Positions 40,286 to 54,883 of a stretch of 64,000 bases of DNA are shown piece by piece. How positions within the stretch are numbered: position 1 is the first letter of the stretch; each line of letters begins with the position of its first letter. Source of the DNA: Cyanobium sp. Cruz CV13-4-11 (GTDB lineage Bacteria > Cyanobacteriota > Cyanobacteriia > PCC-6307 > Cyanobiaceae); assembly GCF_024346055.1 (NCBI RefSeq), contig NZ_JAGQCH010000017.1:1-64000 (forward strand), written 5' to 3'. Both the position numbers and the translations under genes were made by a program. The notes beneath the pieces are model-generated. The model saw only the letters and a program-made list of their open reading frames with translations, made no database searches and was not told the DNA's origin.

Positions 40286-40287
40286 GC

Positions 40288-40479
40288 TCAGGTCCAGCGG
40301 CATGCCACCGCCAGGTCGGTGGCCACCTGCCGCGACCGCCGGTCCCGCGTCCAGAGCCGGGCCCGGCCGATCAGGGTCGAGGCCAGCAGGTGGGCGTCCA
40401 GGTAGCCGAGACCACGCCCCATCAGGGCCTGCGCTTCGATCCGGTGATCCACCCAGACGGAGGTGTCGACAAGGATCAC
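40288..40479 (-). pseudogene. VapC PIN toxin with large internal deletion
   Basis: The frame reads MILVDTSVWVDH, the PIN N-terminus, then directly RIEAQALMGRGLGYLDAHLL and ARLWTRDRRSRQVA, the PIN C-terminal half. A normal VapC of this type is about 125-135 aa; here 63 aa remain, so about 65-70 central residues are lost without breaking the frame. The central acidic residue is missing, so it should be inactive. The antitoxin gene upstream is intact and overlaps by 4 bp. Confidence 0.7.
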
Positions 40480-40673
40480 GGCGCCGGCGGGTGGCGGCGG
40501 GGGATGGCCTGCAGCTGGGACTCGCTGGCTCCGAGGGCCACGAGCCGTCGGGCGCTCTCCCGTTCCACCAGGGCCACCAAGGCATGCCGCAGCAACTGGC
40601 TGCGCTCGCTCACTCCGGAGAGTTCCTGTGCCTGGCGAAGGAGGTCGTCATCGAGGGTGACGGTGGTGCGCAT
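40476..40673 (-). CDS. VapB-type antitoxin paired with the broken VapC
   Basis: The 65-aa protein MRTTVTLDDDLLRQAQELSG has the ribbon-helix-helix N-terminus of VapB proteins and a C-terminal toxin-binding tail. It overlaps the truncated toxin gene by 4 bp. It may survive as an orphan regulator. Confidence 0.75.
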   Translation of the reverse strand: MRTTVTLDDDLLRQAQELSGVSERSQLLRHALVALVERESARRLVALGASESQLQAIPRRHPPAP

Positions 40674-40689
40674 GGGAGAGCAGGGATAT

Positions 40690-40935
40690 CAGGCCTTCGC
40701 TGCATTCTTTCAAGCATCATTTGATGCGGTCTGGTCCGAGGCCATGCAGGGGCTCGCACAGGTGGAGTGGCGTCACTTCGATGGCCTCATCCCCGTGAGC
40801 TACGGGATACTCAGCCAGCTGCTGCGGAAGCATCACCTGGTCGTGGCCCTCGACAACCGAACGGTCCCAGGCGGGGAGGACCGGGCAGGATGGAACGGCC
40901 CTGACTGCCGGGCACTGTCAGGCCCTTCCCATTGA
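40690..40935 (+). pseudogene. Decayed copy of the C-terminal domain of the FGE-fold protein next door
   Basis: One frame reads FDAVWSEAMQGLAQVEWRHF then DGLIPVSYGILSQ. This aligns with residues of the downstream 40999-42348 protein, ASEQMQRLERLEVRYF then HGLTPTAYGVHSQ (SExMQxL...ExRxFxGLxPxxYGxxSQ conserved). No FGE domain precedes it. It is a remnant of a duplicated gene. Confidence 0.5.
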
Positions 40936-40998
40936 GCACGGGGATTCGCAACGCCCCAGACTTGGATCACACCATCGTCTGGTCCGGCGTCTCACCCC

Positions 40999-42348
40999 AT
41001 GGCTGATCCAGGAACCGGCTCCAAAGCGCCAGCCGCTGCCCAGCCCTGGCGGGTGTTGCGTTGGCGAAGCCGCCACCAGGCCTATGTGGAACAGGTGAGT
41101 GGGCTGGCGCTGACCCTGATGCGGATCCCGGCGGGGAGTTTTCTGCTGGGGGGGCCTGGAGGCCAGCAGCTGAGTATTGGTGAGTTCCTGATCGGGCAGA
41201 CCCCGGTCACGCAGGCCCAGTGGCGGGTGGTAGCGGCATGGCCCAAGCAGGAACATGAGCTGGACCCCGAGCCCGCTTCCTTGCGAACTGGCCGTGAAGT
41301 AGCTTCCGGCAGCAAAGGTGATGACTTCTTGAATTGGCCGATGGCGAGCGTCAGCTGGTTCGATGCCAGGGAGTTCTGCCTTCGGCTAGCATCAAAAACG
41401 GGACGCCGCTACGGCTTGCCAAGTGAGGCGCGCTGGGAATACGCCTCCCGGGCAGGAAGCGTCACCTCGTTCTGCTACGGGGAGGAGTTGCCGAAGGACC
41501 TCGCCGCCCATGGCGGATCGCCCAGCGACGGACCTGGGGCGGTGGCCCGCTACCCAGCCAATGCCTGGGGCCTGCACGACGTGCATGGCCTGGTATGGGA
41601 ATGGTGCTCCGATCACTGGCGGGAGGAGCTGAGCTCAGCGCTTGTGGAGGGAGAACCCTGGCTGGATCCATTCGGCATCGATTCGCCCCACGGAACCCGC
41701 CATGTGATGCGTGGCGGCAGCTGGGCAAGTCCAGCTGGCCAGTGCTCTTTCGCCTTCCGCAGCAACGGTGGTCATCCTGGAAACGCCTGGAACCAGAATG
41801 GCTTTCGCGTGTGTTGCCTGCCGCCGCAGCGTGCGCAGCCCATGGAGGAGCCTGAGGAGCCACAGATTCCCCTCACGTTGCAACCACTCAATGGCAGGGG
41901 CCGCAACGTGATCACGGGCAAGGCCCAGCTCAAACGGGGCGGGAGCGGCCTTTTCGGACTGCGGCTGGACTTCTCCTTGGCCTCAGAGCAGATGCAACGT
42001 CTGGAGCGTCTGGAGGTGCGCTATTTCCATGGGCTCACCCCCACCGCCTACGGGGTCCATAGCCAGCGGCTGTCGATCGACGGCGAGGAGCGCCCCTTGG
42101 GCCTCGACGGACACCTCACCCCTCCACTGGATTGCCAGCCCGGCCAGGTGCATCACCTGATCTTTGCGGCGGAACTCCTGGGCAGGCCCACCGATGTCGG
42201 CTTCGAGGGCACGGATTATGGCCGCGGGCTTGTGAGGCTCGAGGCCAGTCGCTGCCAGAGCGAAGTGCCCTTCTTCCTCAACCCCGGCGGAGAGATGCTG
42301 CTCAGTCACGAGCAGGACGCCTGGCACGGTCCAGAGGACTACCACTGA
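40999..42348 (+). CDS. FGE-sulfatase/C-type-lectin-fold protein with extra C-terminal domain
   Basis: The 449-aa protein has an FGE (SUMF1) domain at residues ~30-285: LMRIPAGSFLLGGP, QTPVTQAQWRVVA, GLPSEARWEYASRAGS and WGLHDVHGLVWEWCSDHW. It ends with RGGSWASPAGQCSFAFRSNG and NGFRVCCLP. That end corresponds to the variable region of the two DGR-linked paralogues in this window, but its DNA does not match the template. Residues ~290-449 form an additional domain (RYFHGLTPTAYGVHSQ) of unknown family. No signal peptide. It is likely a former or separately evolving DGR-type display protein, upstream of the conflict operon. Confidence 0.8.
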   Translation: MADPGTGSKAPAAAQPWRVLRWRSRHQAYVEQVSGLALTLMRIPAGSFLLGGPGGQQLSIGEFLIGQTPVTQAQWRVVAAWPKQEHELDPEPASLRTGREVASGSKGDDFLNWPMASVSWFDAREFCLRLASKTGRRYGLPSEARWEYASRAGSVTSFCYGEELPKDLAAHGGSPSDGPGAVARYPANAWGLHDVHGLVWEWCSDHWREELSSALVEGEPWLDPFGIDSPHGTRHVMRGGSWASPAGQCSFAFRSNGGHPGNAWNQNGFRVCCLPPQRAQPMEEPEEPQIPLTLQPLNGRGRNVITGKAQLKRGGSGLFGLRLDFSLASEQMQRLERLEVRYFHGLTPTAYGVHSQRLSIDGEERPLGLDGHLTPPLDCQPGQVHHLIFAAELLGRPTDVGFEGTDYGRGLVRLEASRCQSEVPFFLNPGGEMLLSHEQDAWHGPEDYH

Positions 42349-42397
42349 GTATTCATGCAGCAGCAGCCATAGCGGAGGGGATTGGCTAGTTTCTGGG

Positions 42398-42991
42398 ATG
42401 TGGTCTTTGGCGTGCGGCGACCCGGCGATGCAGGAACGTACTACCGGTGGCCTGGTCCCAGCAGAGGAGCCCCCTATCCCCCGCCTGGCCCTGTTGCAGC
42501 GCAGCCCGGAAGAGTACGGTGAAATGTATGCGCAGCATCTGTTCGAGCAGTACAAGTTGGCGGTGGAGATGGCTGATCGGGTCAGTGCTCGGCGGATGCA
42601 GGCCAACACCTTTTTTCTTGGCATCAATACTGGGCTGCTGACTGTGTTCGCTACCCTTGTTAAGGAAAAGCTCCTGGGTGTTGGATGGACAGGGGCTTTG
42701 CCCATCGTGGCTTTGCTGATTCTCTGCTATGTGTGGTGGCGGATCGTGAATAGCTATCGTCAGCTAAATACAGGCAAGTACGAGGTGATTCTAGCGCTGG
42801 AGAAACTACTGCCTGTCGCCCCCTACCATGCCGAATGGATCGCCTTGGGCGAAGGAAAGAATCCAAGAAAGTATCTTCCCCTCACTCACATCGAAAACTG
42901 GGTGCCTCGGCTTTTCGGGCTGCTGTACTTCTTGCTCATGATCGCGGTGCTGGCCTCCGGCCACGGATCTGGCTCGACGCCTCCTGTATGA
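42398..42991 (+). CDS. RipA-like membrane protein
   Basis: The product (197 aa from ATG 42398; ATG 42428 is an alternative) has EYGEMYAQHLFEQYKLAVEM followed by ADRVSARRMQANTFFLGINT, the conserved start of RipA-family octameric membrane proteins. Two close hydrophobic segments follow (TGLLTVFATL and GALPIVALLILCYVWW), then a third near the C-terminus (FGLLYFLLMIAVLA). Such proteins are often coupled with nucleotide- or phage-responsive systems as pore-like effectors (inference). It precedes the DUF4062 gene by 199 bp. GC is lower than in core genes. Confidence 0.65.
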   Translation: MWSLACGDPAMQERTTGGLVPAEEPPIPRLALLQRSPEEYGEMYAQHLFEQYKLAVEMADRVSARRMQANTFFLGINTGLLTVFATLVKEKLLGVGWTGALPIVALLILCYVWWRIVNSYRQLNTGKYEVILALEKLLPVAPYHAEWIALGEGKNPRKYLPLTHIENWVPRLFGLLYFLLMIAVLASGHGSGSTPPV

Positions 42992-43190
42992 ACACTTTGT
43001 CCTCCTTCCCCCAAGCTTCAGGGCGTGCTTCCCTCCAATTTATTGGAGCCATCAAGCTTGATGGTCTCCACTCGACCACTTCTTGTGGCATCAATAAGAT
43101 CGTTGAAAGGATGCTTCTGCTCGCAAGGGCTAGACCCGCTTTGAAGGATGTGTGGCATTGTTTTCACGTGGCCATGACAAGCTGATTTCG

Positions 43191-44705
43191 ATGCAAGCCA
43201 CTAGCTTTTATCTCTCCAGTACGTTCCTTGATCTCAGCCGTGAGCGCGAGCTGTTGGCTGAGTATCTTGGTAAATTTGGGCAGATTGATGTTCAGAGCCT
43301 ATTGGCTAGCCCGGATCGCCCCCTTCAGATGTGTTTGGACGATATTGATCGATGCGACGCTTACATTCTTCTGGTCGGCTCGCGCTATGGGGAGGTTGTT
43401 GAGGGGATGGACGGAGAAATGCGTTCAATCACCCACCATGAATTCTGGTGGGCTGCACAACAGAAAAAGCCAATCTTTGCTTTTTTCCTTTGTTATCCGA
43501 CAGTGGGGCTCAATGATCCAGCGTTGCAGGATTCAGAGGTTAAGGAGCGCCTCATTGAGTTCAAAAAACAGGTGAAGAGTCTTGGGGGAACTCCCGGTTT
43601 GGTCCACAAGCGAGACAATTTGATTGGAGAGGTCCTAGCGGCTATCAACCGGCACCTCGGGTTGAGTCTATCCCGCGATCCTCAGACTTTTTATCTTTCA
43701 CCAAAGAAAGCCACCAATAGCATCGCCCAGGGGACCTTGGCCGGCAAGGATCTCTTCCTGATGATACAGGTAAAGGAAAGGGGTGTGATGTTCGACCTGA
43801 TTCCGGAAGCCATGGCGGCGAATGCTGAAGGCCTTTTTGAGCCAGTGAATGTGGAGTTCGATCCGGCTTCTGGAGTGGAGATCGGGAGTTTGCCTCAGTA
43901 CTTGGAAGAGTGGAGCCAGCAGGCTCAGGATTCCCTCTTGCCTGATCAGGCTGATCAGATTGAGGATGTTGTGATTGAGATTTTTCTCTCGGCGGAGATG
44001 CTGGCCCATTCTCTCAGCGGCAATGATTCCATTGGCGCGTTTCGCCGCGGAGTTGCTTCGATTGCTGATCAGCCATATGTAGTGCGAACGCTCACGCGGG
44101 CACTGGGTCCAAGGATTTTTCACAATAAGTTGCGGAATCGATGGCACAATTCTTCCCGCCATTCTCAGGGACTGCGTGCCTGCTTGCGCTGGCCACTGCC
44201 GAATGGATCAACGGATCAGCACCAGGCTCGTCTACAGTTCAAAGCCAGATTGAAAGACATGGATGCCGATAGCTGTCTGCTGTGTCTTGCAGATCTTCCT
44301 GCCGATTCGATAGAGGCAGGCAGCCTGATCACGGCGATCCTGGAGGCGCCATTGCCGCTTCTCCTACTCTGGCATGCCTGCAGTGCTGGCCTCAAGGACA
44401 GGTTCCGAAACTCCCTTAAGCTCTTGGATCTTGAGGGATTAGCTCCTCCGAAGCTGGGAGACTCCGTTTCTGATGCGGTCTCTGGTCAGGAGAATCCGCC
44501 CATCACCCGCTATCCGATCGATGCTCGAGAATGGAGTTCCCTGTCTTTGGCCACTCGGCGACGCAGTTTGTTTGGCCGAGGTGAGAGCTGGGTCGACGAT
44601 GCGATGCTTTTGGTCGATTGTCCGGATCGCTGGCCCCGCAAGATCCCGGACGTTCAAAGCCGCCCAATGGACCGATTGCAGCTCCGCATCGGACCCTCTG
44701 CCTGA
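43191..44705 (+). CDS. DUF4062 / VMAP-like protein of a ternary conflict system
   Basis: From ATG 43191 the protein is 504 aa. Residues 5-125 are a DUF4062 domain (FYLSSTFLDLSRERELLAEY; DRCDAYILLVGSRYGEVVEG; THHEFWWAAQQKKPIFAFF), a TIR/deoxyribosyltransferase-like fold used for nucleotide sensing or cleavage. Residues ~185-500 resemble VMAP-type regions (vWA-MoxR-associated protein), ending in WVDDAMLLVDCPDRW. A MoxR ATPase gene begins 7 bp downstream and a vWA-type protein follows, which supports the VMAP reading. The base composition is noticeably less GC-rich than the flanks. Confidence 0.68.
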   Translation: MQATSFYLSSTFLDLSRERELLAEYLGKFGQIDVQSLLASPDRPLQMCLDDIDRCDAYILLVGSRYGEVVEGMDGEMRSITHHEFWWAAQQKKPIFAFFLCYPTVGLNDPALQDSEVKERLIEFKKQVKSLGGTPGLVHKRDNLIGEVLAAINRHLGLSLSRDPQTFYLSPKKATNSIAQGTLAGKDLFLMIQVKERGVMFDLIPEAMAANAEGLFEPVNVEFDPASGVEIGSLPQYLEEWSQQAQDSLLPDQADQIEDVVIEIFLSAEMLAHSLSGNDSIGAFRRGVASIADQPYVVRTLTRALGPRIFHNKLRNRWHNSSRHSQGLRACLRWPLPNGSTDQHQARLQFKARLKDMDADSCLLCLADLPADSIEAGSLITAILEAPLPLLLLWHACSAGLKDRFRNSLKLLDLEGLAPPKLGDSVSDAVSGQENPPITRYPIDAREWSSLSLATRRRSLFGRGESWVDDAMLLVDCPDRWPRKIPDVQSRPMDRLQLRIGPSA

Positions 44706-44711
44706 TTCCCA

Positions 44712-45935
44712 ATGAACCAATCCACCACACCTCCTGAAGTCACTCTGGCTCCGTTCCAGCTTTTCCAGGAGACAGGATCTTTTGACGATCCCGATTTTCT
44801 GACAGCGCCAACACGCCGCCCGCTTTGGCCACCTCCACCTCCTTGGCGTCGGTTTCTCTCGAGCAAACAACTGGAGAGAATCCTTCCGGTTGATCAGGAT
44901 GAGACGGAATGGCAAGAGATTCTGAAATCAAGGAATGTGGATGACACAGCAACCCCTGATACCGATGGTGCCAGCACCGGAGCTCAGGCCATGATCAACA
45001 GAGATCAGATTCGAGGTGCCGTTTTCCGGCTGCCGGAGGAGACCATTCCCGAGGGAGGCGTTAGTGCGGGAGAAAAGATCCGGCTGGCCGTGAATGCGGC
45101 CATCCATCTTCGGCGGCCGCTCCTGATCTCCGGTGACCCAGGAACAGGAAAAACCAGCCTTGCTTATGCCATCGCCTGGCAGCTGGGCCTCGGGCCGGTG
45201 TTGAAATGGCCGATCACCCCCCGCAGCCGCCTACGTGAAGATGGCCTGTACGGATATGATGCTTTGGGCAGATTGAATGCAACCCAGATTGCCAAGGCCG
45301 GATCGCGGCCACGCACCCAGGCCGATGAGCCGATATCGATTGGCCACTACATCACCCTCGGCCCAGTGGGAACTGCGTTTCTCCCCTCGCGTTGGCCGAG
45401 AGTTCTGCTCATCGATGAGATCGACAAAGCTGATCTACAACTCCCTAATGAGTTGCTACATCTCTTTGAAGAAGGTGAATTCGCCATCGAGGAGCTTCGG
45501 CGTGATCCCCAACCCGTCGTGGAGGTTGGCACCTGTGACGATCGCAGAGTGCCGATTCACAACGGCACCGTGCAGTGCTTTGAATTTCCGATTGTGGTGA
45601 TGACAAGCAACCGGGAGCGTGATTTCCCACCGGCCTTTCACCGCCGTTGCCTTCGCATCGACATGCCGAGGCCGACGCAGAGCAGCCTGCTGGCCCTGGT
45701 GAAAGCTCACTTCCGTGATGCCGATCCGGCCTTCTGGGGTGATCTCAAGCAGGACGAACAACTTGAGCAATGGATCGGCGAGTTTCTTGTTGGCGGCAAC
45801 AATCCCGACCGGGCCACTGATCAGCTGCTCAATGCGTTGTATCTGCTGACGCAGACGGACTCCCGGCAGCTTGGCGAGGCACTGGAGAAGCAGCTGAAGG
45901 AAATCCTCAAACGGCGGCTCAGCGAGGCAGGGTAA
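44712..45935 (+). CDS. MoxR-type AAA+ ATPase
   Basis: The 407-aa protein has a Pro-rich, disordered N-terminus (~90 residues). The AAA+ module follows with Walker A GDPGTGKTSLAYA (residues 141-148), Walker B RVLLIDEIDKADLQLPNELL (near 230) and sensor 1 IVVMTSNRERDFPPAFHRRC with the Arg finger. MoxR ATPases partner with vWA proteins to remodel client complexes. The stop codon is directly followed by the GTG of the vWA-lysozyme gene, so expression is coupled. Confidence 0.9.
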   Translation: MNQSTTPPEVTLAPFQLFQETGSFDDPDFLTAPTRRPLWPPPPPWRRFLSSKQLERILPVDQDETEWQEILKSRNVDDTATPDTDGASTGAQAMINRDQIRGAVFRLPEETIPEGGVSAGEKIRLAVNAAIHLRRPLLISGDPGTGKTSLAYAIAWQLGLGPVLKWPITPRSRLREDGLYGYDALGRLNATQIAKAGSRPRTQADEPISIGHYITLGPVGTAFLPSRWPRVLLIDEIDKADLQLPNELLHLFEEGEFAIEELRRDPQPVVEVGTCDDRRVPIHNGTVQCFEFPIVVMTSNRERDFPPAFHRRCLRIDMPRPTQSSLLALVKAHFRDADPAFWGDLKQDEQLEQWIGEFLVGGNNPDRATDQLLNALYLLTQTDSRQLGEALEKQLKEILKRRLSEAG

Positions 45936-48900
45936 GTGGAACCCTCACCGGTTGCGGCGCAGGGTGGGTCACCTTCTGAACTCAGCCTGCTGAGCGAGCT
46001 GTTGCCATGTCTGGCGGCGTCGGTGCCGGAGCGGCTCGATGCCAGGGAGCTGGCCGAGCTGCTTTGGCTGGTTCGGCAGATGCCTCCAGGGGCTGAGCGA
46101 TCGCACACCGCGGAACAACTCACCTCCGATTCAACAAAGCAAGAGCAGGAAACGAAGGTCTCCAAGGTCAACGAAACCGGCAAGGAGACCGTTGACACCA
46201 AGGGAGATGAGCCAGCGGATTCCGGTTCAGTTCAGGAGGGATCCACCAACGGAGCATCCCCAAGCGAGCCGGCTCCCTCCACGGCGGCACTTCTGCCGGA
46301 ACGGGCACTGCCCCGTGAGGAGGACCGGGCCGAGGTTCTGGCTGTGTGGCTGGAGGATCCCCCCCTCATCGGCGACTCCCTTGGCCTGCTTCGATCGCTG
46401 GCCCCGTTGCAGGGGCGGGTGGGATCTGCGCACCGCCGCCAGCTGGATGAAGCCGCCACGGTGGAAGCCTTTGTTCGTTCGTTCGGTCCTCAGGGGGAGG
46501 GAGGGTGGCTGCGGCCGGTGTTTCAGCCGCTCCCGGAGCCCCGTTTCGAACTGGTGCTGGTGGTGGACAGCGGCGCTTCGATGCGTTTGTGGGACCGTTT
46601 GGTGGCCGATCTCACCCGGACGCTGAGCAGCTGCGCTGTGTTCCGCGACATGAAGTTGGTTGCCTTGCCGGAATCCAACGGGACCATGCCTCAAGTGGGA
46701 CGGCTATGCCAAAGCGATCCAGAAGGGCGCCGGCTCCTGCTGTTGCTCAGTGATTGCTGTGGCGACCATTGGTGGTCCGGGCGGATGGCGGCTCTGCTGG
46801 CCGGATGGAGCAGGGATCAGCCGCTGGCGGTGCTGCAGGTTTTGCCCGGCTGGATGTGGGAGCGCACGGCTCTGGGTCTTGGGGATCCGCTTGTGCTGGC
46901 CAATCGCGTGGAGGCAGGGCCCAACCAGCGCTACAGGGCAGAACGTCAAAACTGGACGGAAGAACCCCCGAGCTGGTCGGAGCCCTTTGAGCCCTACCCA
47001 GGTCGTCACGCTGCTGTGCCTCCGGTCGTGCCGGTGGTGAGCTGTGATCCCTCCGGCCTTACCCAGTGGAGTGCCTTGGTGATGGGCATGCCTCGTGGGA
47101 TCTGTGCCGGATTCCGCCTGCCTTTGGTGGATGTCCTTAGCCAGGAGCCCGCCGCACAGGAGGGGTCGGTGTCTTCCACTGATGCTGAAGAGTTGGTAGC
47201 AGAGGCAGCCGCAACGGAATCCGCCGAATTGGAGCACCTGCACCGATTCAAGGAACTCGCCTCCCCAAAGGCCCAACGACTGCTGGGTCTGATGGCCGCA
47301 TCCCCGGTGTTCACCCTGCCGGTGATGCGGCTGGTGAGGCAGGCCTTGCTGGCAGGCGACCGCACACCCCTGGCGACGGCCGAAGTGCTGCTCAGTGGTG
47401 TGGTGCAGTTGGTGCCGGAGCAGGCCGGGACGGCTGCGAAAGCACCATTGCCGGAGCAATGGCAATTCACCATGGCCCCGGAAGTTCGCCGTGAGCTGGT
47501 GGCCGGAGTGGAAAGCATTGATGCGGTCACGGTGTTCAATGCCGTCTCGCGGATGGTGGAGGAGCGCTGGAATCGGTTCATGCCCAAGGGCAGTTTCCGC
47601 GCTTTTCTGACCGATCCCAACCAGCCCTCTCCCGAAGGGTTGGAGGGGATGGAAAGCTTCGCTCGGGTTGCCGCCGAGATTGTCGAAGGGCTCGGGGGTG
47701 ATTATCGGAGCTTCGCCGAGCAACTGCGCCGAGGTGCGACCAAACGCCCTATCAATATCTGGCCGCAGGACCAGTTCCCTTTTGAATCAATGACTTTCGA
47801 AACCGTCCAACTGCTGCGGATCCCCGAGCCTGAAGTGCGGCGGTTTGAATGGGCGCAATTCGAAGAGATCGAGCTTTTCTCGATCGCCTTTACTACGGCC
47901 TCGATCGAGCTGGATGCCACTTCTTCCTCCGAGGGCCCTGCCGCACCAGACAGGGAAACTGATGCCGACCAGCTTCCCTCTGAGGCGGCCGCCCTCATCC
48001 AGAACTACGAAGGCTGCCGGCTCCAGGCCTATCCGGACCCTGCAACGAGGGCGGAGCCGATCACGATCGGCTGGGGCAGCACCTTCTACGAGGACGGCTC
48101 CCCCATCCGTCTGGGGGATGTGATCAGCCAGGAGCAGGCGGACGCTCTCTACTACTTCAACTTCCGTGAGCGATTCTGGAAAGACCTGAAGGCGACCATT
48201 CCCTTCTGGTCGGAGATGAACGACAAGCAGAAGGCGGCCCTCTGCAGTTTCGCTTATAACAACGGCGCCCATTTCCATGGCGACGGGAGGCACGACACCC
48301 TCGATCTGCAGCTTCGGGAGCGCCACTGGGAGGCGATACCCGGCAGCCTTATGATGTATAGGAATCCAGGCACCAGCGTCGAGGTGGGCCTGGGTCGCCG
48401 TCGCCGGGCCGAAGGGCTGGTGTGGATTGGCATGGAACCCACCGTCGCCTGTACCCAGGCGGAACGGGAGATCGCCACCCCGGCCGATTGCGAGGCCTGG
48501 GAGCAGCACCTGAAGCAGGCACCACCAACCCCTGCCTCCCTGCCGGTCATCACTGCAGAAGAAACCCTTGAGGCCGTATCACGCTCGGTGCTGGAGGTGT
48601 CCTCCTGGACGGTGGCCTCTTTGAAGGACTCCACCTGGGGCTACCACGAACCCCTCGACCCCGGGCCGCCCACCACCTCGGTGGCCCCCCCGGCCCTCAC
48701 GATGCTGCGCATCCCCGCCGGCAGCTTCCTGATGGGCTCCTCCACCGAGGAACCCGGGCGCTTCGACGATGAAGGCCCCCAGCACCCAGTGACCCTGGCG
48801 GAGTTCTTCCTGGCCCGCACCCCGATCACCCAGGCCCAGTGGCGGGCGGTGGCGAACTGGCAACCGGGAGAGGGGGAACCGCCCTGGGAGCTGGCGCTGA

Positions 48901-49493
48901 AGCAGGATCCCCTTGGAACGGATGTCGATCCCCGTTTTCGCGGCGACGAACGGCCAGTGGTGAACGTGAGCTGGCACGACGCGAAGGAGTTCTGCCGCCG
49001 TCTGAGCAAGCGCACGGGCAAGAGCTACACCCTGCCCAGCGAAGCCCAGTGGGAATACGCCTGCCGGGCGGGCAGCACCACGCCGTTCCACTTCGGTGCC
49101 ACGATCAGCCCCAAGGTGGCCAACTACGACGCCTCCACCAGCTACGCGGGGGGGCCGACGGGTGAGTACCGCCAACACACGAGTGATGTGGGCAGCTTCC
49201 CCTCCAATGCCTGGGGCCTGCAGGACATGCACGGCAACGTGTGGGAATGGTGCCTGGATCATTGGCACGGAAGTTATGTGGAGGGGGATGAGAAGGCCCC
49301 CACGGATGGCTCTGCCTGGATCAAGCAAACCGCCGAAGAAGGTGAAAACAGGCTGCTGCGCGGCGGTTCGTGGAACGACCTCCCCAGGATCTGCCGCTCG
49401 GCCTACCGCGACGACCTCCACCCCTGCTTCGCCGACGGCAACGTCGGCTTCCGCGTCTGTTGCCTCCCCCAGGACCTGCTTCTTGACCCTTAG
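45936..49493 (+). CDS. DGR target: SAV_2336/vWA-like region, GH24 lysozyme, FGE-fold variable domain
   Basis: This 1,185-aa protein starts at GTG directly after the MoxR stop. Residues ~120-400 match SAV_2336/vWA-like proteins (FELVLVVDSGASMRLWDRLV; RRLLLLLSDCCGDHWWSGRM). Residues ~685-832 are a GH24 lysozyme: NYEGCRLQAYPD then TIGWGS, with E692, D701 and T710 at the T4-lysozyme catalytic spacing, and CSFAYNNGAHF. Residues ~905-1185 are an FGE/C-type-lectin fold (RIPAGSFLMGSS; QWEYACRAGSTTPFHFG; VWEWCLDHW). The last ~40 residues are encoded by variable repeat 1. No signal peptide is seen. It is likely an intracellular sensor-effector of a MoxR conflict system, with diversified ligand recognition. 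The lysozyme may be an effector or a recruiting module. Confidence 0.87.
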   Translation: MEPSPVAAQGGSPSELSLLSELLPCLAASVPERLDARELAELLWLVRQMPPGAERSHTAEQLTSDSTKQEQETKVSKVNETGKETVDTKGDEPADSGSVQEGSTNGASPSEPAPSTAALLPERALPREEDRAEVLAVWLEDPPLIGDSLGLLRSLAPLQGRVGSAHRRQLDEAATVEAFVRSFGPQGEGGWLRPVFQPLPEPRFELVLVVDSGASMRLWDRLVADLTRTLSSCAVFRDMKLVALPESNGTMPQVGRLCQSDPEGRRLLLLLSDCCGDHWWSGRMAALLAGWSRDQPLAVLQVLPGWMWERTALGLGDPLVLANRVEAGPNQRYRAERQNWTEEPPSWSEPFEPYPGRHAAVPPVVPVVSCDPSGLTQWSALVMGMPRGICAGFRLPLVDVLSQEPAAQEGSVSSTDAEELVAEAAATESAELEHLHRFKELASPKAQRLLGLMAASPVFTLPVMRLVRQALLAGDRTPLATAEVLLSGVVQLVPEQAGTAAKAPLPEQWQFTMAPEVRRELVAGVESIDAVTVFNAVSRMVEERWNRFMPKGSFRAFLTDPNQPSPEGLEGMESFARVAAEIVEGLGGDYRSFAEQLRRGATKRPINIWPQDQFPFESMTFETVQLLRIPEPEVRRFEWAQFEEIELFSIAFTTASIELDATSSSEGPAAPDRETDADQLPSEAAALIQNYEGCRLQAYPDPATRAEPITIGWGSTFYEDGSPIRLGDVISQEQADALYYFNFRERFWKDLKATIPFWSEMNDKQKAALCSFAYNNGAHFHGDGRHDTLDLQLRERHWEAIPGSLMMYRNPGTSVEVGLGRRRRAEGLVWIGMEPTVACTQAEREIATPADCEAWEQHLKQAPPTPASLPVITAEETLEAVSRSVLEVSSWTVASLKDSTWGYHEPLDPGPPTTSVAPPALTMLRIPAGSFLMGSSTEEPGRFDDEGPQHPVTLAEFFLARTPITQAQWRAVANWQPGEGEPPWELALKQDPLGTDVDPRFRGDERPVVNVSWHDAKEFCRRLSKRTGKSYTLPSEAQWEYACRAGSTTPFHFGATISPKVANYDASTSYAGGPTGEYRQHTSDVGSFPSNAWGLQDMHGNVWEWCLDHWHGSYVEGDEKAPTDGSAWIKQTAEEGENRLLRGGSWNDLPRICRSAYRDDLHPCFADGNVGFRVCCLPQDLLLDP
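49352..49472 (+). repeat. DGR variable repeat 1 (VR1)
   Basis: The 121 bp align without gaps to the template at 51039-51159. There are 14 mismatches and every one sits on a template adenine; 12 of 26 adenines in the core are unchanged. The changed codons include AAC to GAC, CTC, ATC, TTC and GGC, and TAC to TGC. The invariant 3' 30 bp (49443-49472) is shared exactly and corresponds to the initiation-of-mutagenic-homing position in other DGRs. Confidence 0.95.
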
Positions 49494-49551
49494 ACCCTTG
49501 GTCCCTTTTCCCTGGCTGTTGCTTCACCCTGGCTGCTGGCTGTTTTAGGTG

Positions 49552-49571
49552 GGCGCCGCAGGCGCCTGCGA
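49552..49571 (+). promoter_or_regulatory. Hairpin between the VR1 target and avd
   Basis: GGCGCC at 49552-49557 can pair with GGCGCC at 49561-49566 around a 3-nt loop. An alternative 5-bp stem within the perfect palindrome 49557-49570 is followed by ATTTTTT. It could be a partial intrinsic terminator. It could also be the cruciform-like element that some DGRs need downstream of the target; that role is inferred. Confidence 0.45.
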
Positions 49572-49590
49572 TTTTTTGAGGATTCTCTCC

Positions 49591-49953
49591 TTGTCTGCAC
49601 CCACCCCAAACTCTGCCGAACTCCCCATCCTCGAGGCCTGTCTCGATCTGATCCGTTGGTATGTACCGCTGCTGCAGCGTCTGCCGCGCCAGCACAAGTT
49701 TGGCCTTGGTGATCGCCTCGTTTCAACGCTCTACGATCTGATGGAAGCGCTGGTGGCGGCCCGCTATGCCCGCGCCAAGCTGCCGATTCTCGAACCCCTC
49801 GGCGCCCGCATCAATCTGCTCCAGCTGCAGACCCGGCTGCTGCATGATTTCCACCTGATCGACCTTCCCCGCTACGAGCACGCCAGCCGGCTGATCGCCG
49901 CCATCGGCCGCCAGCACAGCGGCTGGTTGTCGCAGCAGCGGCAGGCGCTGTGA
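49591..49953 (+). CDS. avd: DGR accessory variability determinant (Avd)
   Basis: TTG at 49591, preceded by GAGG at good spacing, gives 120 aa. The helical pattern fits the four-helix Avd bundle: LIRWYVPLLQRLPRQHKFGL (LP+xxKF-x-LG), DRLVSTLYDLMEALVAARYA, LLQLQTRLLHDFHLIDLPRY and IGRQHSGWLSQQ. Avd forms a pentamer that binds the reverse transcriptase and template RNA and is required for mutagenic reverse transcription. It overlaps the RT gene by 4 bp. The frame is open back to GTG 49549, but that start would lie in the hairpin. Confidence 0.88.
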   Translation: MSAPTPNSAELPILEACLDLIRWYVPLLQRLPRQHKFGLGDRLVSTLYDLMEALVAARYARAKLPILEPLGARINLLQLQTRLLHDFHLIDLPRYEHASRLIAAIGRQHSGWLSQQRQAL

Positions 49954-51020
49954 GGCCAGCTCCTCTCGCCGATCTTTATTCCGCCATCACCAGCTTCGCC
50001 AGCCTCCATGGCGCTTCTCGGAGGGCCCAGAAAGGCAAACGCTACCGCCCTGCGGTGCTCAGCTTCAACGCCCGTCTGGAGGAGAATCTCTTCACGCTGC
50101 AGCAGGAACTGCGGAGCTTCACCTACAGCCCAGGCTCCTATCGCCAGTTCGAGATCTTCGAGCCCAAGCGGCGCCTGATCTCCGCCGCCCCCTACCGCGA
50201 TCGCGTGGTGCACCATGCCCTCTGCGCCGCGATCGGGCCGCCGCTGGAGCGTGCCTTCCTTCCCACCAGCTATGCCAACCGCAGGGGCTACGGCAGCCAC
50301 CGAGCCCTGCGTCGCTTCGTGCGGGAATGCCGGCGCCACAAGTGGGTGTTTCAGGCCGATCTGCGGCTCTATTTCCCCAGCGTCGATCTCACGATCCTGC
50401 GCGCCCAACTGGCGGAGCGCATCGCCTGCCCCGGCACTCTCTGGCTGCTTGATCGCCTCCTCGCCAACGGCGCCAACCTCGGCCCTGCCATCGACGGCTT
50501 CCCCGGCGACACCCTGCTCACCCCGCTGGAGCGCCCACGCGGCCTGCCGATCGGCAACCTCACCAGCCAGTTCCTCGCCAACCTCCACCTCGCTCGCTTC
50601 GATCACACCATCGCCGCTTTGCCCGGCATCGCTGCCTATCTGCGCTACGTGGATGATTTCGCCCTCTTCGCTGATGCCCCCGAACCGCTCCGCCAGGCCC
50701 GCGAGGTGATCGGCGCGGAGCTGGCGGAGCTGCGCCTGCGGCTCCATCCGATCAAGAGCCAGCTCCGCTGCACACGACACGGCGCCAGCTTCGTGGGCTT
50801 TCACGTGCTGCCGCAGCGGGTGCGGGTGCGCAACCACAACCTGCTCAAGGGCCGACGCCGGCTCAAGGCCCTCGCCCGGGACGTCGCGGCGGGACACTGC
50901 AGCCCCGAGGTGGCCCGGATCCGGGTGATCAGCTGGAACGCCCACCTGGCCCATGGCACCACCTGGAGGCTGCGGCGGCGATTGTTCCGTGATCTGCCCT
51001 TCGCGGCGGGCCTACCCTGA
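49950..51020 (+). CDS. DGR reverse transcriptase
   Basis: The 356-aa protein starts at GTG (overlapping the avd stop). RT motifs appear in order: [20 protein letters not shown] (motif 1-2), [13 protein letters not shown] with D137 (motif A), [18 protein letters not shown] with IGNLTSQ at 201-207, and [13 protein letters not shown] with YVDD at 233-236. The IGxxxSQ form of motif 4 is typical of DGR RTs, rather than the QG motif of group II or retroviral RTs. The enzyme copies the template RNA with errors at A. The template lies 19 bp after its stop. Confidence 0.95.
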
Positions 51021-51038
51021 ATCCGGGCAGGTCGACCA

Positions 51039-51159
51039 GCTGCTGCGCGGCGGTTCGTGGAACAACAACCCCAGGAACTGCCGCTCGGCCTACCGCAACA
51101 ACAACCACCCCTACAACGCCAACAACAACGTCGGCTTCCGCGTCTGTTGCCTCCCCCAG
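51039..51159 (+). repeat. DGR template repeat (TR)
   Basis: The 121-bp segment has 11 AAC codons in register with the target reading frame (first run at 51061-51069, then 51076, 51097-51105, 51114 and 51121-51129). AAC can mutate at both A positions without making a stop, as is usual for DGR templates. Flanks 51039-51060 and 51130-51159 are identical to VR1. It lies on the same strand as RT, immediately downstream, in the arrangement of target, avd, RT, TR. Confidence 0.95.
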
Positions 51160-51317
51160 CACCCTTCACCGCCAGAGCCGGCCGATGGCAATCGGCCGGG
51201 AGCACACGAGGGGTCCAGACCCGCTCCGGTGATCGCCCCGGCTCACGCCTTGGCTGATCCGCACAGTGCCCGGTGGGCGGAGCCGCGGTTCAAGCCGCAG
51301 GCTCGCCCACCCTTCCC

Positions 51318-51893
51318 TCATCCCGCCCAGATCTCTGCCAGCGCGAGTTCCAGCCCGGGGTACACGGTGCCGGCGTCGAGCCGCTCCGCCGCCTCGATCC
51401 TGCGGCCGTTGCCGGCCGGTCCCCACTCCTCCACGGCCTGCTCGTCGGGAAAGAGAAGCCAGCCCAGGCTGGCGCCATTGGCCTGGTAGGCCGCCATGCG
51501 GCGGCGCAGGTCGGCCGCCCGGTCGCTGGGGCTGGCCAGTTCCACCACAAGATCGGGGCACAGGGGCGGAAAGCCGCGTCGCTGCTCCTCGCTCAAGGCT
51601 TGCCAGCGATCGAGCCGCACCAGGCTGGCATCGGGGCTGCGCACCGAACCATCGGGCAGCAGGAAGCCGCCGGAGCTGTCGAACACCTTCAGGGGGAGTC
51701 CGCTGCGGCGTACGGCCAGCCACAACAGGGAGGTGAGGCTGCCATTGCGGGCGCTGGTGTCGCCGCCGGTGGGAGTCATCGTGATCAGGCTGCCATCGGC
51801 ATCGAGCTCCAGCACCGTTTCCGGATTGGCGGCGCATACGGCCGCGAACTGCTCGGGGGTGAGTCGCAGGTCGGTGGGCAGGGTGAGGGTCAT
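51318..51893 (-). CDS. Uma2 (DUF820) restriction-endonuclease-fold protein
   Basis: ATG at 51893 ([20 protein letters not shown]) gives 191 aa. The Uma2 pattern is complete: [54 protein letters not shown] and [15 protein letters not shown]. The PD-(D/E)xK-like core has D and E-L in PDLVVEL. Uma2 proteins are abundant in cyanobacteria, with unknown role. It sits between the DGR template and the second target on the opposite strand. Confidence 0.88.
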
Positions 51894-51976
51894 CGACGTC
51901 CCCGGCAGGGGTGTTTTGACGTTAAGTGCGCTGGGCTTGTTCCAGCGCGATGCTGGAGCGCACCTTGTGGCTCCCC

Positions 51977-52846
51977 ATGGCCAGCAGCAGCCCACCGCGC
52001 CAGAGGTTCCTGATCCGACGTCGCGGCCAGTGCCAGTTGTTCCGCGAGCCGCTGGGGGAGGCTCTTGAGCTCGAGATGGTCTGGATCCCGCCCGGGCGTT
52101 TCTGGATGGGATCTCCGCCGGGGGAACCTGATCGCGAGGAATCGGAAGGGCCTCCGCATCTGTTGCAGTTGCAGGGCTTCTTTCTGGGGCGTACGCCGAT
52201 CACACAGGCCCAGTGGCGGGCGGTGGCGGGTTGGCAGTCGCTGGAGGGAGAACCTCCCTGGGAGCGGGACCTGAAGCCGGATCCTTCCCACTTCAAAGGG
52301 GATGATTGGCCCGTGCAGAACGTGAGCTGGCACGACTCCATGGAGTTCTGCAGTCGCCTGGGAAGGCGAACGATGCGGAAGTACACCCTGCCCAGCGAAG
52401 CTCATTGGGAATACGCCTGCCGCGCTGGCTCCACCACTCCTTTTCATTTCGGGGCAACGATCAGCCCGAAGCTTGCCAGTTACGACGCCTCAACGACCTA
52501 TGCCGAAGGCCCCACGGGATCAACAAGAAGCGAACCCAAGTGGGTGGCCAGTTATCCGGCGAATCCCTGGGGCCTGCACGACATGCACGGTAACGTGTGG
52601 GAATGGTGCCTGGATCATTGGCACGATAGCTATGCGGAGGGTGATGAAAAAGCCCCCACGGATGGCTCTGCCTGGATGAAGCAGACCGCCGAAGAACCTG
52701 AACGCGTGCTGCGCGGCGGTTCGTGGGACTTCCTCTCCGCATTCTGCCGCTCGGCCAGCCGCGGCGATGCCCACCCCGACGGCGCCAGCAGCCGCGTCGG
52801 TTTCCGCGTCTGTTGCCTCCCTCGGGACCTGCTTCTTGACCCTTAG
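51977..52846 (+). CDS. Second DGR-linked FGE-fold protein
   Basis: From ATG 51977 the product is 289 aa (GTG 51926 is an alternative). Almost the whole protein is one FGE/C-type-lectin domain: MVWIPPGRFWMGSPPGEPD, RTPITQAQWRAVAGW, EAHWEYACRAGSTTPFHFG and VWEWCLDHWHDSYAEGD. It ends RVLRGGSWDFLSAFCRSASR and GFRVCCLP, encoded by variable repeat 2. It is highly similar to the C-terminal domain of the 45936-49493 protein, including the DLLLDP tail and ~60 bp after the stop, so the two arose by duplication. No lysozyme or vWA region is present. Confidence 0.85.
   Translation: MASSSPPRQRFLIRRRGQCQLFREPLGEALELEMVWIPPGRFWMGSPPGEPDREESEGPPHLLQLQGFFLGRTPITQAQWRAVAGWQSLEGEPPWERDLKPDPSHFKGDDWPVQNVSWHDSMEFCSRLGRRTMRKYTLPSEAHWEYACRAGSTTPFHFGATISPKLASYDASTTYAEGPTGSTRSEPKWVASYPANPWGLHDMHGNVWEWCLDHWHDSYAEGDEKAPTDGSAWMKQTAEEPERVLRGGSWDFLSAFCRSASRGDAHPDGASSRVGFRVCCLPRDLLLDP
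52707..52825 (+). repeat. DGR variable repeat 2 (VR2)
   Basis: It aligns gap-free with template bases 51041-51159. About 20 mismatches fall on template adenines, but at least seven fall on other bases (for example CCC to TCC, AGG to GCA, TAC to GAC, GGC to GGT). The A-bias shows a past DGR target, while the other changes show that it has not been rewritten recently by this template or was made by a sister template. Confidence 0.85.
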
Positions 52847-52894
52847 CCTCCTGCCTCCTTTTCTCTGGCTGTTGTTTCACCCAGGCTGCTGCCC

Positions 52895-54883
52895 TCAGAA
52901 CGTCACCTCCAGCCGCAGGCTGCGCAGGGTGCCCCGATCGGCCCGGGCCGTGTCGGACACCTCCAGGGTCCAGGTGCCGCTGGGATCGCTGCCCTTCAAG
53001 TTCGCCAGGCCTGGCGCGTTCACGGCGTCGTAGGTGACCTTGAGATTGTCGGTGCCGCCGCCGGCGCGATCGTGGAGCAGCAGCGGAGCGGCCCCCATGG
53101 CGGCGGGCGGCAGCAGCCGCACCACCAGATCGCCGATGAAGGTGTGGTCGAGATCCACCGCCACCCGGATCGACTGCAGCGGGCCCGGGGCGGCCACCGG
53201 CAGGGTCAGGGTGGCGGTCTGGAAGTCGTTGATGGGCACGTCCTGCACGGCCTGGAACACCAGGGCCGCCGCCGGCTGGGGTGGGCGGGCCAGCTCCACC
53301 GCCTTGCGGGCGCTGACCCGCCCGTAGCCGTAGAAGGGGCTGCGCCCGCTGGCGTCGTAGTTGCCGCCGGCAGTGTCGATCCGCACGCAGGCCCGCCGCA
53401 GGATCTCCCGCACCTCGTCCCAGCGCAGGGCCGGATTTCGCGCCAGCACTAGGGCCACCACCCCGGCCACGCCGGGGCAAGCGCTGGAGGTGCCGCCGAA
53501 GGAGTTGGTGTAATGGCCCGCTGGGTCGCCCTTCTGGGGGCTGCCCTGGTTGTAGCCCAGCCCGCCGGAGCGGTCGGTGGTCCAGATGCCGGGGGTGAGG
53601 GAGGGCCGGCCGTCGCTGCTGGGAAAGCTGCACCACACGGCCTTGCCGTAGTCGCTGTAGGCGCTGCGTTTGGAGAGGTCGTTGCAGGCCGCCACGGCGA
53701 TCACCCGGGCGTAGCTGGCATAGCCATCGTTGTCGACGCTCTCGTTGCCGTTGCCCGCCGCGAACAGCACCACGCAGCCCTTGCCGCTGCGGCCCTGGGT
53801 GGTGGCGAAGTCGATCGCCAGTCGGGTGGAATCCGGCAGCGGCACCACCTGGCGGTGGGCGGGATCGTTCGGGTCCCACCAGGCCCCATCCGGTGGACCC
53901 CAGCTGCAGGAGATCACATCGGCGCCGTTGCGGGCCGCCCACACGAAGGCCTCGGCTTCCGCCTGGGAGCCCAGGCCGGAGGCCAGCCGGATCGGGATCA
54001 GCCGGGCGCCGGGGGCCACGCCCGTGGCACCGAACTGGCCGTTGGCGCAGGCCACCCCCGCACAGGCCGTGCCGTGATCGTCGCCGCGGCCGGGCCGGGG
54101 ATCGCCGCTCTGGCGGGTCACATCCCGCGGGGCAACCACCTTGCCGGAGGAGCGGAATTCCTCATGGTCGATGTCGAAGCCGTCATCCACCACCGCGATG
54201 ATCGCCCCGGTGCCGTCGCTGAGGGACCAGGCCGCCTCCACCTCGGCGTGGGCGTCGACGAGCCGGCCGTTGACAGCGGTGGCCTTGAGATGCCACTCGG
54301 ACGGGAAGGCCTGCCGGCGCTGCCGGCTGGGGCTCACCAGCTCGGGGTGGCAGAGCGCCACGCTCGCTTCCCCCAGCAGGGTTTCGGCGATCTCGAAAAC
54401 GCCGAGCCCGCTGTTGTCGGGAGCGGCCACGAAATAGGCGTTGCGGGCATAGCTGAGGGTGCGTTTGAGGCTGAGGCCGTGGCGCTGCAACAGCGCCTCA
54501 CAGGTTTCGGCCTCCGCGTCATCCTCAAACTTGACGAACAGATTCTCCGTGTAGACCACGGGCCGGCCGGTGCCATCCACCAGAACGCGGCCGGCGAAGT
54601 CCACCGCTGGTTCCGCCTTGAGCAGACTGCGGGCGGAGTCGCGCAGGGCCCCATCGGCCTGGGGGGTTCTGGTGCTCAACAGCTCCACCCCCGCCTCGCG
54701 GAAGCGGCTGAGGGTCTCGAACTGGTCAAGAATCCGGTGGGTCTCGGCACTGACGTGCGACACCTCGAACGGCCGAGCCGGCATCACCGCCTGGCGACTC
54801 AGGGTGCGGACGACGAGGTGATTGTCGCTGATGGCCAGTTCATGGGACCCACCATTCCTGCCACCGTATCGAACCTGAACCAT
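52895..54883 (-). CDS. S8 (subtilisin-like) serine protease with C-terminal P domain
   Basis: The 662-aa protein has a prodomain-like region (LFVKFEDDAEAETCEALLQR), then the subtilase catalytic core: Asp in IIAVVDDGFDIDHEEF, His in DDHGTACAGVA, and Ser466 in GGTSSACPGVAG. The last ~150 residues form a proprotein-convertase P domain (RVAVDLDHTFIGDLVVRLLP; GTWTLEVSDTARADRGTLRS). No signal peptide is evident. ATG 54883 has AGGAG eight bases upstream, which fixes the start. It may process secreted or partner proteins. Confidence 0.92.
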   Translation of the reverse strand: MVQVRYGGRNGGSHELAISDNHLVVRTLSRQAVMPARPFEVSHVSAETHRILDQFETLSRFREAGVELLSTRTPQADGALRDSARSLLKAEPAVDFAGRVLVDGTGRPVVYTENLFVKFEDDAEAETCEALLQRHGLSLKRTLSYARNAYFVAAPDNSGLGVFEIAETLLGEASVALCHPELVSPSRQRRQAFPSEWHLKATAVNGRLVDAHAEVEAAWSLSDGTGAIIAVVDDGFDIDHEEFRSSGKVVAPRDVTRQSGDPRPGRGDDHGTACAGVACANGQFGATGVAPGARLIPIRLASGLGSQAEAEAFVWAARNGADVISCSWGPPDGAWWDPNDPAHRQVVPLPDSTRLAIDFATTQGRSGKGCVVLFAAGNGNESVDNDGYASYARVIAVAACNDLSKRSAYSDYGKAVWCSFPSSDGRPSLTPGIWTTDRSGGLGYNQGSPQKGDPAGHYTNSFGGTSSACPGVAGVVALVLARNPALRWDEVREILRRACVRIDTAGGNYDASGRSPFYGYGRVSARKAVELARPPQPAAALVFQAVQDVPINDFQTATLTLPVAAPGPLQSIRVAVDLDHTFIGDLVVRLLPPAAMGAAPLLLHDRAGGGTDNLKVTYDAVNAPGLANLKGSDPSGTWTLEVSDTARADRGTLRSLRLEVTF

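What the first reader, a model, noticed from the sequence alone, without database searches (positions are those of the whole stretch)
51977..52846. Second FGE-fold target with an older, drifted variable repeat
VR2 matches the template at about 20 adenine-directed sites but also differs at no fewer than seven other bases. The gene and ~60 bp after its stop are duplicated from the large target. It lies downstream of the template, so one template may serve two targets of different age, or VR2 may be fading.
Basis: seen in the sequence. Interest (0 to 1): 0.65.

Follow-up and report, generated by a model that had tools for sequence, protein, structure and literature searches.

The report
Retired second target of a retroelement
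A cyanobacterial DNA-mutating cassette that keeps rewriting one receptor gene has a second, neighbouring receptor gene that it once rewrote but has not overwritten for a long time, probably because the DNA hairpin that normally marks a target is missing there.

Summary
VR2 (52707-52825) differs from the template (TR, 51041-51159) at 21 adenines and 8 other bases; VR1 differs only at adenines. No other template was found in the genome. T2 is not a stray copy of T1: 22 of 48 cyanobacterial TR loci have a target in this downstream slot, and the other 21 show 0-2 non-adenine core differences against 7 here. Both sides changed since VR2 was last rewritten: the TR at 51112 and probably 51135, VR2 at about five sites, one open. 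So VR2 is a real but retired target. New: the cassette lies in a 12.6 kb insertion (40287-52894), absent from 8 of 9 relatives examined, whose right edge cuts T2's 3' flank before the GGCGCC hairpin that follows 24 of 27 family VRs. The three VRs without it carry 8, 8 and 1 non-adenine changes, those with it 0-4 (p = 0.0025, post hoc); a class-wide test is not significant (p = 0.20), and two other loci lack clear hairpins without drift. T2's frame is intact: probably a frozen receptor.

The parts
51977..52846 (+). T2: stand-alone FGE/C-type-lectin-fold target gene in the downstream slot (alternative GTG start 51926)
52707..52825 (+). VR2: variable repeat with 21 adenine-site and 8 non-adenine differences from TR
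52808..52825 (+). 3' end of VR2 (IMH-like): differs from the TR copy at 2 of its last 4 bases (CCCCCAG to CCCTCGG; one of the two is a TR adenine)
52847..52894 (+). truncated T2 3' flank: 48 nt, most of it shared with the T1 flank, ending at the island junction; hairpin absent
51041..51159 (+). TR: template repeat
49950..51020 (+). DGR reverse transcriptase (RVT_1; YVDD read in the translation)
49549..49953 (+). bAvd accessory protein (true start probably later)
45936..49493 (+). T1: large upstream target, Phage_lysozyme plus C-terminal FGE domain
49354..49472 (+). VR1: adenine-only differences from TR
49552..49566 (+). GGCGCC-GCA-GGCGCC hairpin downstream of VR1, followed by a T run
51318..51893 (-). 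Uma2-family gene lying between TR and T2 (TR-to-VR spacing 1666 nt here, 947-1214 nt in 21 other loci)
40287..52894 (.). 12.6 kb inserted island holding the cassette; site without it in 8 of 9 relatives examined
52895..54883 (-). subtilase gene whose stop codon is the right edge of the island

Best explanation
T2 is the second, downstream target of a one-template DGR. It was diversified from the local TR (shown by the strong adenine bias), but it has not been fully overwritten since before the TR acquired its present bases at 51112 and probably 51135, whereas VR1 has (the bases are shown; the direction of change is inferred from other TRs). Cause (inferred): T2's 3' flank was cut at the edge of a 12.6 kb insertion, removing the hairpin that marks targets for retrohoming; changes at the last bases of VR2 and a Uma2 gene placed between TR and T2 may add to this. 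T2 keeps an intact frame and probably works as a frozen receptor of the same conflict cassette (inferred).
For: Adenine bias in VR2, Fisher p = 1.7e-11, with no such bias outside the VR. No second TR found in the genome. Window VR2 has the largest core non-adenine count (7) of 87 distinct VRs from 48 TR loci: 66 have 0, 12 have 1, 4 have 2, 5 have 4 or more; with the 3' end added one other VR (L138 8681) has more. At 51112 the window TR has T, which 0 of 53 other TRs have, and VR2 has G like 45 of 53; at 51135, 0 of 8 family TRs have the window's C and 5 of 8 have VR2's T. TR/VR2 third positions differ at 4 of 40, T1/T2 outside the VR at 93 of 216 (p = 3.3e-5), so VR2 was reset by homing after the two genes diverged. 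Hairpin in 24 of 27 family VRs, absent at VR2. The right island edge lies in T2's flank. In BPP-1, breaking the stem cut tropism switching over 1000-fold (PMC3240598, abstract and passages).
Against: The hairpin rule was made after seeing the data and rests on three hairpin-less VRs, one of which (L092 12236, 179 nt of flank held) has only 1 change. The class-wide test, with a stricter rule also set after looking at flanks, is not significant (p = 0.20), and both VRs of L171 and of L180 lack a clear hairpin yet have 0 non-adenine changes in core and 3' end. Drifted VRs with a hairpin exist: L187 (5), L138 (6), L078 (4). BPP-1 and the E. coli system keep residual homing without the stem-loop (PMC3240598, PMC12875486, passages). 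Time of retirement against insertion is only roughly matched: third positions 10% (95% CI 3-24%) between TR and VR2 against 14-21% between species. No homing assay or strain data exist here.
Confidence: 0.72

Rival explanations
1. VR2 is still a live target at a low rate: partial or rare homing keeps adding adenine changes, and the eight other differences survive because only short tracts are converted.
For: ORF intact; 21 of 27 adenines changed, more than VR1's 14; residual homing without a hairpin is reported for BPP-1 (PMC3240598, passages); L171 and L180 VRs show no drift without a clear hairpin.
Against: Non-adenine differences are spread over the VR from 51070 to 51156, including its 3' end, where homing is expected to enter; the other 21 downstream-slot VRs have 0-2.
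Confidence: 0.13
2. VR2 was written by a different, now lost template (a second DGR or the donor's earlier TR), not by an older state of this TR.
For: One relative holds VRs whose TR was not found: L083 VRs match the G250 TR with 2-3 core non-adenine differences and lie near an RT matched over residues 3-234 only. A leftover target of another DGR type is reported in Treponema denticola SP32 (PMC4891356, passages).
Against: No other TR found in the genome; VR2 is closer to the local TR (7 core differences) than to any of the six other TRs compared (11 or more); same slot, same cassette.
Confidence: 0.1
3. T2 is a plain FGE paralogue and the adenine match is chance or selection on surface residues.
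For: FGE paralogues may vary at the same surface loops in general (recalled); a third FGE gene of the island (40999-42348) has no evident TR-like repeat.
Against: 20 of 26 core adenines changed against a 25% background (binomial p = 4e-8) while third positions are nearly unchanged (4 of 40 against 93 of 216).
Confidence: 0.02

Closest known systems
Two-target cyanobacterial DGRs with MoxR/vWA neighbours, e.g. Nostoc punctiforme (PMC12691664, passages)
   Same: one TR, two target genes, MoxR-type AAA gene beside the cassette
   Different: in N. punctiforme adenine mutation was detected in both targets; here VR2 has lost step with the TR
Thiohalocapsa PB-PSB1 DGRs (PMC10907252, passages)
   Same: several targets per DGR, degenerate loci, targets that differ in activity, FGE targets in conflict systems
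   [quoted passage not shown] window VR2 does not
Leftover targets: T. denticola SP32 (PMC4891356, passages) and Nostoc PCC 7120 all3226 (PMC7517822, passages)
   Same: target genes with an old VR no longer kept in step
   Different: the SP32 gene is remote from the core cassette and all3226 has no RT nearby; T2 sits beside its own intact RT and TR
BPP-1 target hairpin (PMC3240598, abstract and passages; PMC12875486, passages)
   Same: GC-rich stem with short loop downstream of VR
   Different: in the family here 3-nt loops and a VR-to-hairpin distance of 71-198 nt, against 4-nt GRNA loops at 4-34 bp in the phage set of that paper

Membership tests
DGR variable repeat/target of the local TR | differences from the TR concentrated at TR adenines | tested here: met
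   21 of 27 A against 9 of 93 non-A, p = 1.7e-11
DGR variable repeat/target of the local TR | identity to the TR at non-adenine sites, the mark of current homing | tested here: not met
   8 differences within the VR; so T2 is filed as a former target, not a live one
DGR variable repeat/target of the local TR | VR near the 3' end of a C-type-lectin/FGE-fold gene | tested here: met
   FGE-sulfatase domain, VR2 in the last 140 nt of the gene; sequence match to T. denticola variable protein 2y3c, E = 4.6e-19; no structure was predicted
DGR variable repeat/target of the local TR | 3' hairpin downstream of VR | tested here: not met
   absent at VR2, present at VR1 and in 24 of 27 family VRs; not seen in every cyanobacterial locus
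DGR variable repeat/target of the local TR | adenine-only variation among strains or reads | not testable with these tools
   no second strain with T2 found; no reads available
Complete DGR cassette | RT, Avd and TR in one locus with a matching VR | tested here: met
   RVT_1, bAvd, TR, VR1 with 0 non-adenine differences
VMAP ternary conflict system (PMC7159879, passages) | gene order VMAP, MoxR AAA, vWA | tested here: inconclusive
   VMAP-C at 43152-44705 and an AAA gene at 44712-45935; no Pfam match in the N-terminal part of T1, the vWA-like motif there is only read by eye

The most novel reading that the evidence does not exclude
Cyanobacterial DGRs can switch single targets off by loss of the 3' hairpin while the template stays active, so that a useful receptor variant is fixed beside a still-evolving sibling: a genetic freeze of one binder, with the cassette edge acting as the switch.
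Probability: 0.2. Interest if true: 0.72.

Novelty: new member of a known kind. Interest (0 to 1): 0.45.

Why it matters
Multi-target DGRs and leftover targets are known. This is a within-locus comparison: same genome, same template, one target with and one without the hairpin, and only the one without has drifted. It makes the role of the target hairpin outside phage BPP-1 directly testable. Changes of the template that VR1 copied and VR2 did not give a way to order the last homing of two targets from a single genome.

Tried and rejected
A second template in the genome: none found. T2 as a simple recent duplicate of T1: rejected, because the downstream slot exists in 22 of 48 TR loci including Spirulina and T2's 5' part is closer to relatives' slot genes. 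On the FGE tree without the VR, T1 and T2 group together (92/81, not starred), as do the two targets of Spirulina, L099 and G268, and up- and downstream genes are mixed over the tree; conversion between targets is a likely reason but was not tested formally. Explaining all eight differences by an older TR: only 51112 and 51135 (perhaps 51091) fit. dN/dS of T2 against four relatives' downstream targets (0.18-0.27, dS 1.07-1.52) is no higher than T1's against the same four (0.25-0.32), but dS is near saturation and the measure covers mostly the time before retirement, so it does not show present function (the second method, YN00, failed with an error). A class-wide link between hairpin loss and drift was not significant by rank test (21 VRs were scored hairpin-less by that strict rule, several of which do show a hairpin by the family rule or by eye). 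VRs with over 16 non-adenine mismatches were not collected; 21 of the 81 loci with an RT hit gave no TR motif and 4 more gave only low-adenine motifs and were not used; three repeat records (L195, L196, L198) were dropped; VRs outside the RT neighbourhoods were added for four genomes only (G250, G048, G243, G268). So old VRs are under-counted.

Full report
What is there. The window holds a DGR: T1 (45936-49493, lysozyme plus FGE domain), bAvd, RT, TR (51041-51159), a Uma2 gene on the other strand (51318-51893) and T2 (51977-52846, FGE domain). TR and VR1 differ at 14 adenines and nothing else; TR and VR2 differ at 21 adenines and at 8 other bases. Outside the VR, T1 and T2 show no adenine bias. 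The adenine bias of VR2 is therefore a DGR mark and not paralogue divergence. A DNA search of the own genome (52 contigs, rated 100% complete) with the TR finds TR, VR1 and VR2 and then only short matches at E 0.2 or worse.

T2 is the regular second target. RT searches gave matches in 7 of 300 family genomes, 8 of 42 genus genomes and 63 of 388 class genomes, the own genome counted each time and with different E limits, and 14 loci in genome contigs. From these I collected TRs by a motif rule and all VRs with up to 16 non-adenine mismatches in the RT neighbourhoods, plus further loci of four genomes: 89 VRs from 48 TR loci, 87 distinct with at least 150 nt of flank. 23 of 48 TR loci have two or more VRs. 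22 of 48, the window included, have a VR 600-2000 nt downstream of the TR: at 947-1214 nt in the other 21 (L139 and L140 carry TRs of the same translated sequence and may not be independent), at 1666 nt here. The other 21 have core non-adenine counts of 0 (18 loci), 1 (2) and 2 (1); the window has 7. Over all 87 VRs, 66 have 0, 12 have 1, 4 have 2 and 5 have 4 or more.

Which side changed. At 51112 the window TR has T; 45 of 53 other TRs have G, as VR2 has, and none has T. At 51135 the window TR has C; 0 of 8 family TRs have C and 5 have T, as VR2 has (7 of 53 TRs in the class have C). These two are best read as changes of the TR that VR1 copied and VR2 did not. At 51070 and 51102 all 8 family TRs agree with the window TR, at 51156 seven and at 51074 and 51075 six, so VR2 probably changed there; over the whole class these columns are more mixed (for example T in 17 of 53 at 51156). 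51091 is open: family TRs have mostly T, but 30 of 53 in the class have A, as VR2 has. VR2 was therefore last overwritten before the TR reached its present form. It was also overwritten after T1 and T2 diverged, since TR and VR2 third positions differ at 4 of 40 while T1 and T2 outside the VR differ at 93 of 216.

The missing hairpin and the island. Behind the VRs of the family lies a flank rich in CCCTTAA-like words and then GGCGCC-N3-GGCGCC, often followed by an A/T-rich stretch. By a family rule (at most one mispair, at least 10 of 12 motif bases, within 260 nt) 24 of 27 VRs have it; VR2, L086 2629 and L092 12236 do not. Non-adenine counts (core plus 3' end) are 8, 8 and 1 without it and 0-4 with it, one-sided Mann-Whitney p = 0.0025; the motif appears in 117 of 2000 random 260-nt pieces of the window. 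For L092 12236 only 179 nt of flank were held. This rule was set after looking, and the VRs are not independent. With a stricter rule over the whole class, also set after looking at flanks, the rank test is not significant (p = 0.20; 5 of 21 against 4 of 66 VRs with 2 or more changes, one-sided Fisher p = 0.034; with 4 or more, p = 0.35), and L171 and L180 have neither clear hairpin nor drift. Twelve genus relatives carry the subtilase at 79-95% protein identity and none of them has the RT at E up to 1e-60. I fetched the neighbourhood in 9 of the 12: in 8 the sequences matching window positions 40286 (40291 in one) and 52891-52895 lie 2-42 nt apart; in the ninth (G198) 1,054 nt without a match to the window lie there. 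The window segment 40287-52894 is thus an insertion in this lineage, or, less likely, lost several times elsewhere. Its right edge falls 48 nt behind the T2 stop, before the place where the hairpin would be expected.

Mechanism. In BPP-1 the stem behind the VR is needed for efficient homing and its disruption lowers tropism switching over 1000-fold, with residual activity (PMC3240598, abstract and passages); deleting it in the E. coli reconstitution severely but not completely impairs repair (PMC12875486, passages). I infer that T2 lost homing when its flank was cut. The order of events (insertion, hairpin loss, drift) is not shown. A rough clock is compatible: third positions differ 10% (CI 3-24%) between TR and VR2 and 14-21% between the window and six relatives in the subtilase. 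Changes in the last bases of VR2 (CCCCCAG to CCCTCGG) could be cause or consequence. The Uma2 gene between TR and T2 may separate T2 from the cassette transcript (inference).

Prior work. [quoted passage not shown] Adenine mutation was seen in both targets of the Nostoc punctiforme DGR (PMC12691664, passages). Differential and absent activity of targets is described in Thiohalocapsa (PMC10907252, passages), leftover targets in T. denticola (PMC4891356, passages). In five literature searches the listings and the passages that I saw described no target retired beside its own intact cassette with the hairpin missing; these searches cover only open-licence PMC papers, and of the papers listed I opened passages of nine.

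Noticed in passing
40287-52894: 12.6 kb insertion between two convergent genes, holding an FGE gene, an 8xMP membrane protein, a DUF4062/VMAP-C protein, an AAA gene, the DGR and both targets; Pfam showed no integrase or transposase among the nine island genes searched.
   Followed up: yes
L226 16562-17615: Relative G198 carries a different ~1 kb sequence at the same site, which suggests an insertion hot spot.
   Followed up: no
L074 14441 and L073 8337: In two other genomes the only core non-adenine mismatch of a VR lies at the same TR base (T of the SAY codon, TR 51091 in the window); perhaps a trace of older TRs with AAC there.
   Followed up: partly
L083, L025 (G268 contig 18): Three VRs that fit the TR found in their genome poorly (11-12 core non-adenine differences) and the G250 TR well (2-3), near an RT matched over residues 3-234 only: probably a decayed second DGR.
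   Followed up: partly
up- and downstream targets of 8 loci: FGE domains of the two targets group by genome in 4 of 8 loci on the tree although both slots are old; suggests exchange between targets.
   Followed up: partly
40999-42348: Third FGE gene of the island with a C-terminal extension of about 170 aa; its RGGSW region is one codon longer and shows no evident TR-like repeat.
   Followed up: partly
45936-49493: T1 carries a Phage_lysozyme domain (66 bits) between its N-terminal part and the FGE domain.
   Followed up: no
51318-51893: Uma2 gene with ten further DNA matches in the genome at 68-78% identity; a Uma2-like start also follows a VR flank in L079 near 3934 (read by eye).
   Followed up: no
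L187 9335, L138 8681, L078 5924, L086 2629: Other drifted VRs (4-6 core non-adenine changes; the first two positions count on the minus or plus strand as printed); L138 has lost the 3' end match, L078 fits the TRs of two other species better (2) than its own (4).
   Followed up: partly
L171 and L180: Both VRs of each locus lack a clear 3' hairpin yet differ from the TR only at adenines in core and 3' end.
   Followed up: no
L242-L268: 27 IMG/VR contigs encode FGE-domain relatives of T2 at 42-59% protein identity.
   Followed up: no
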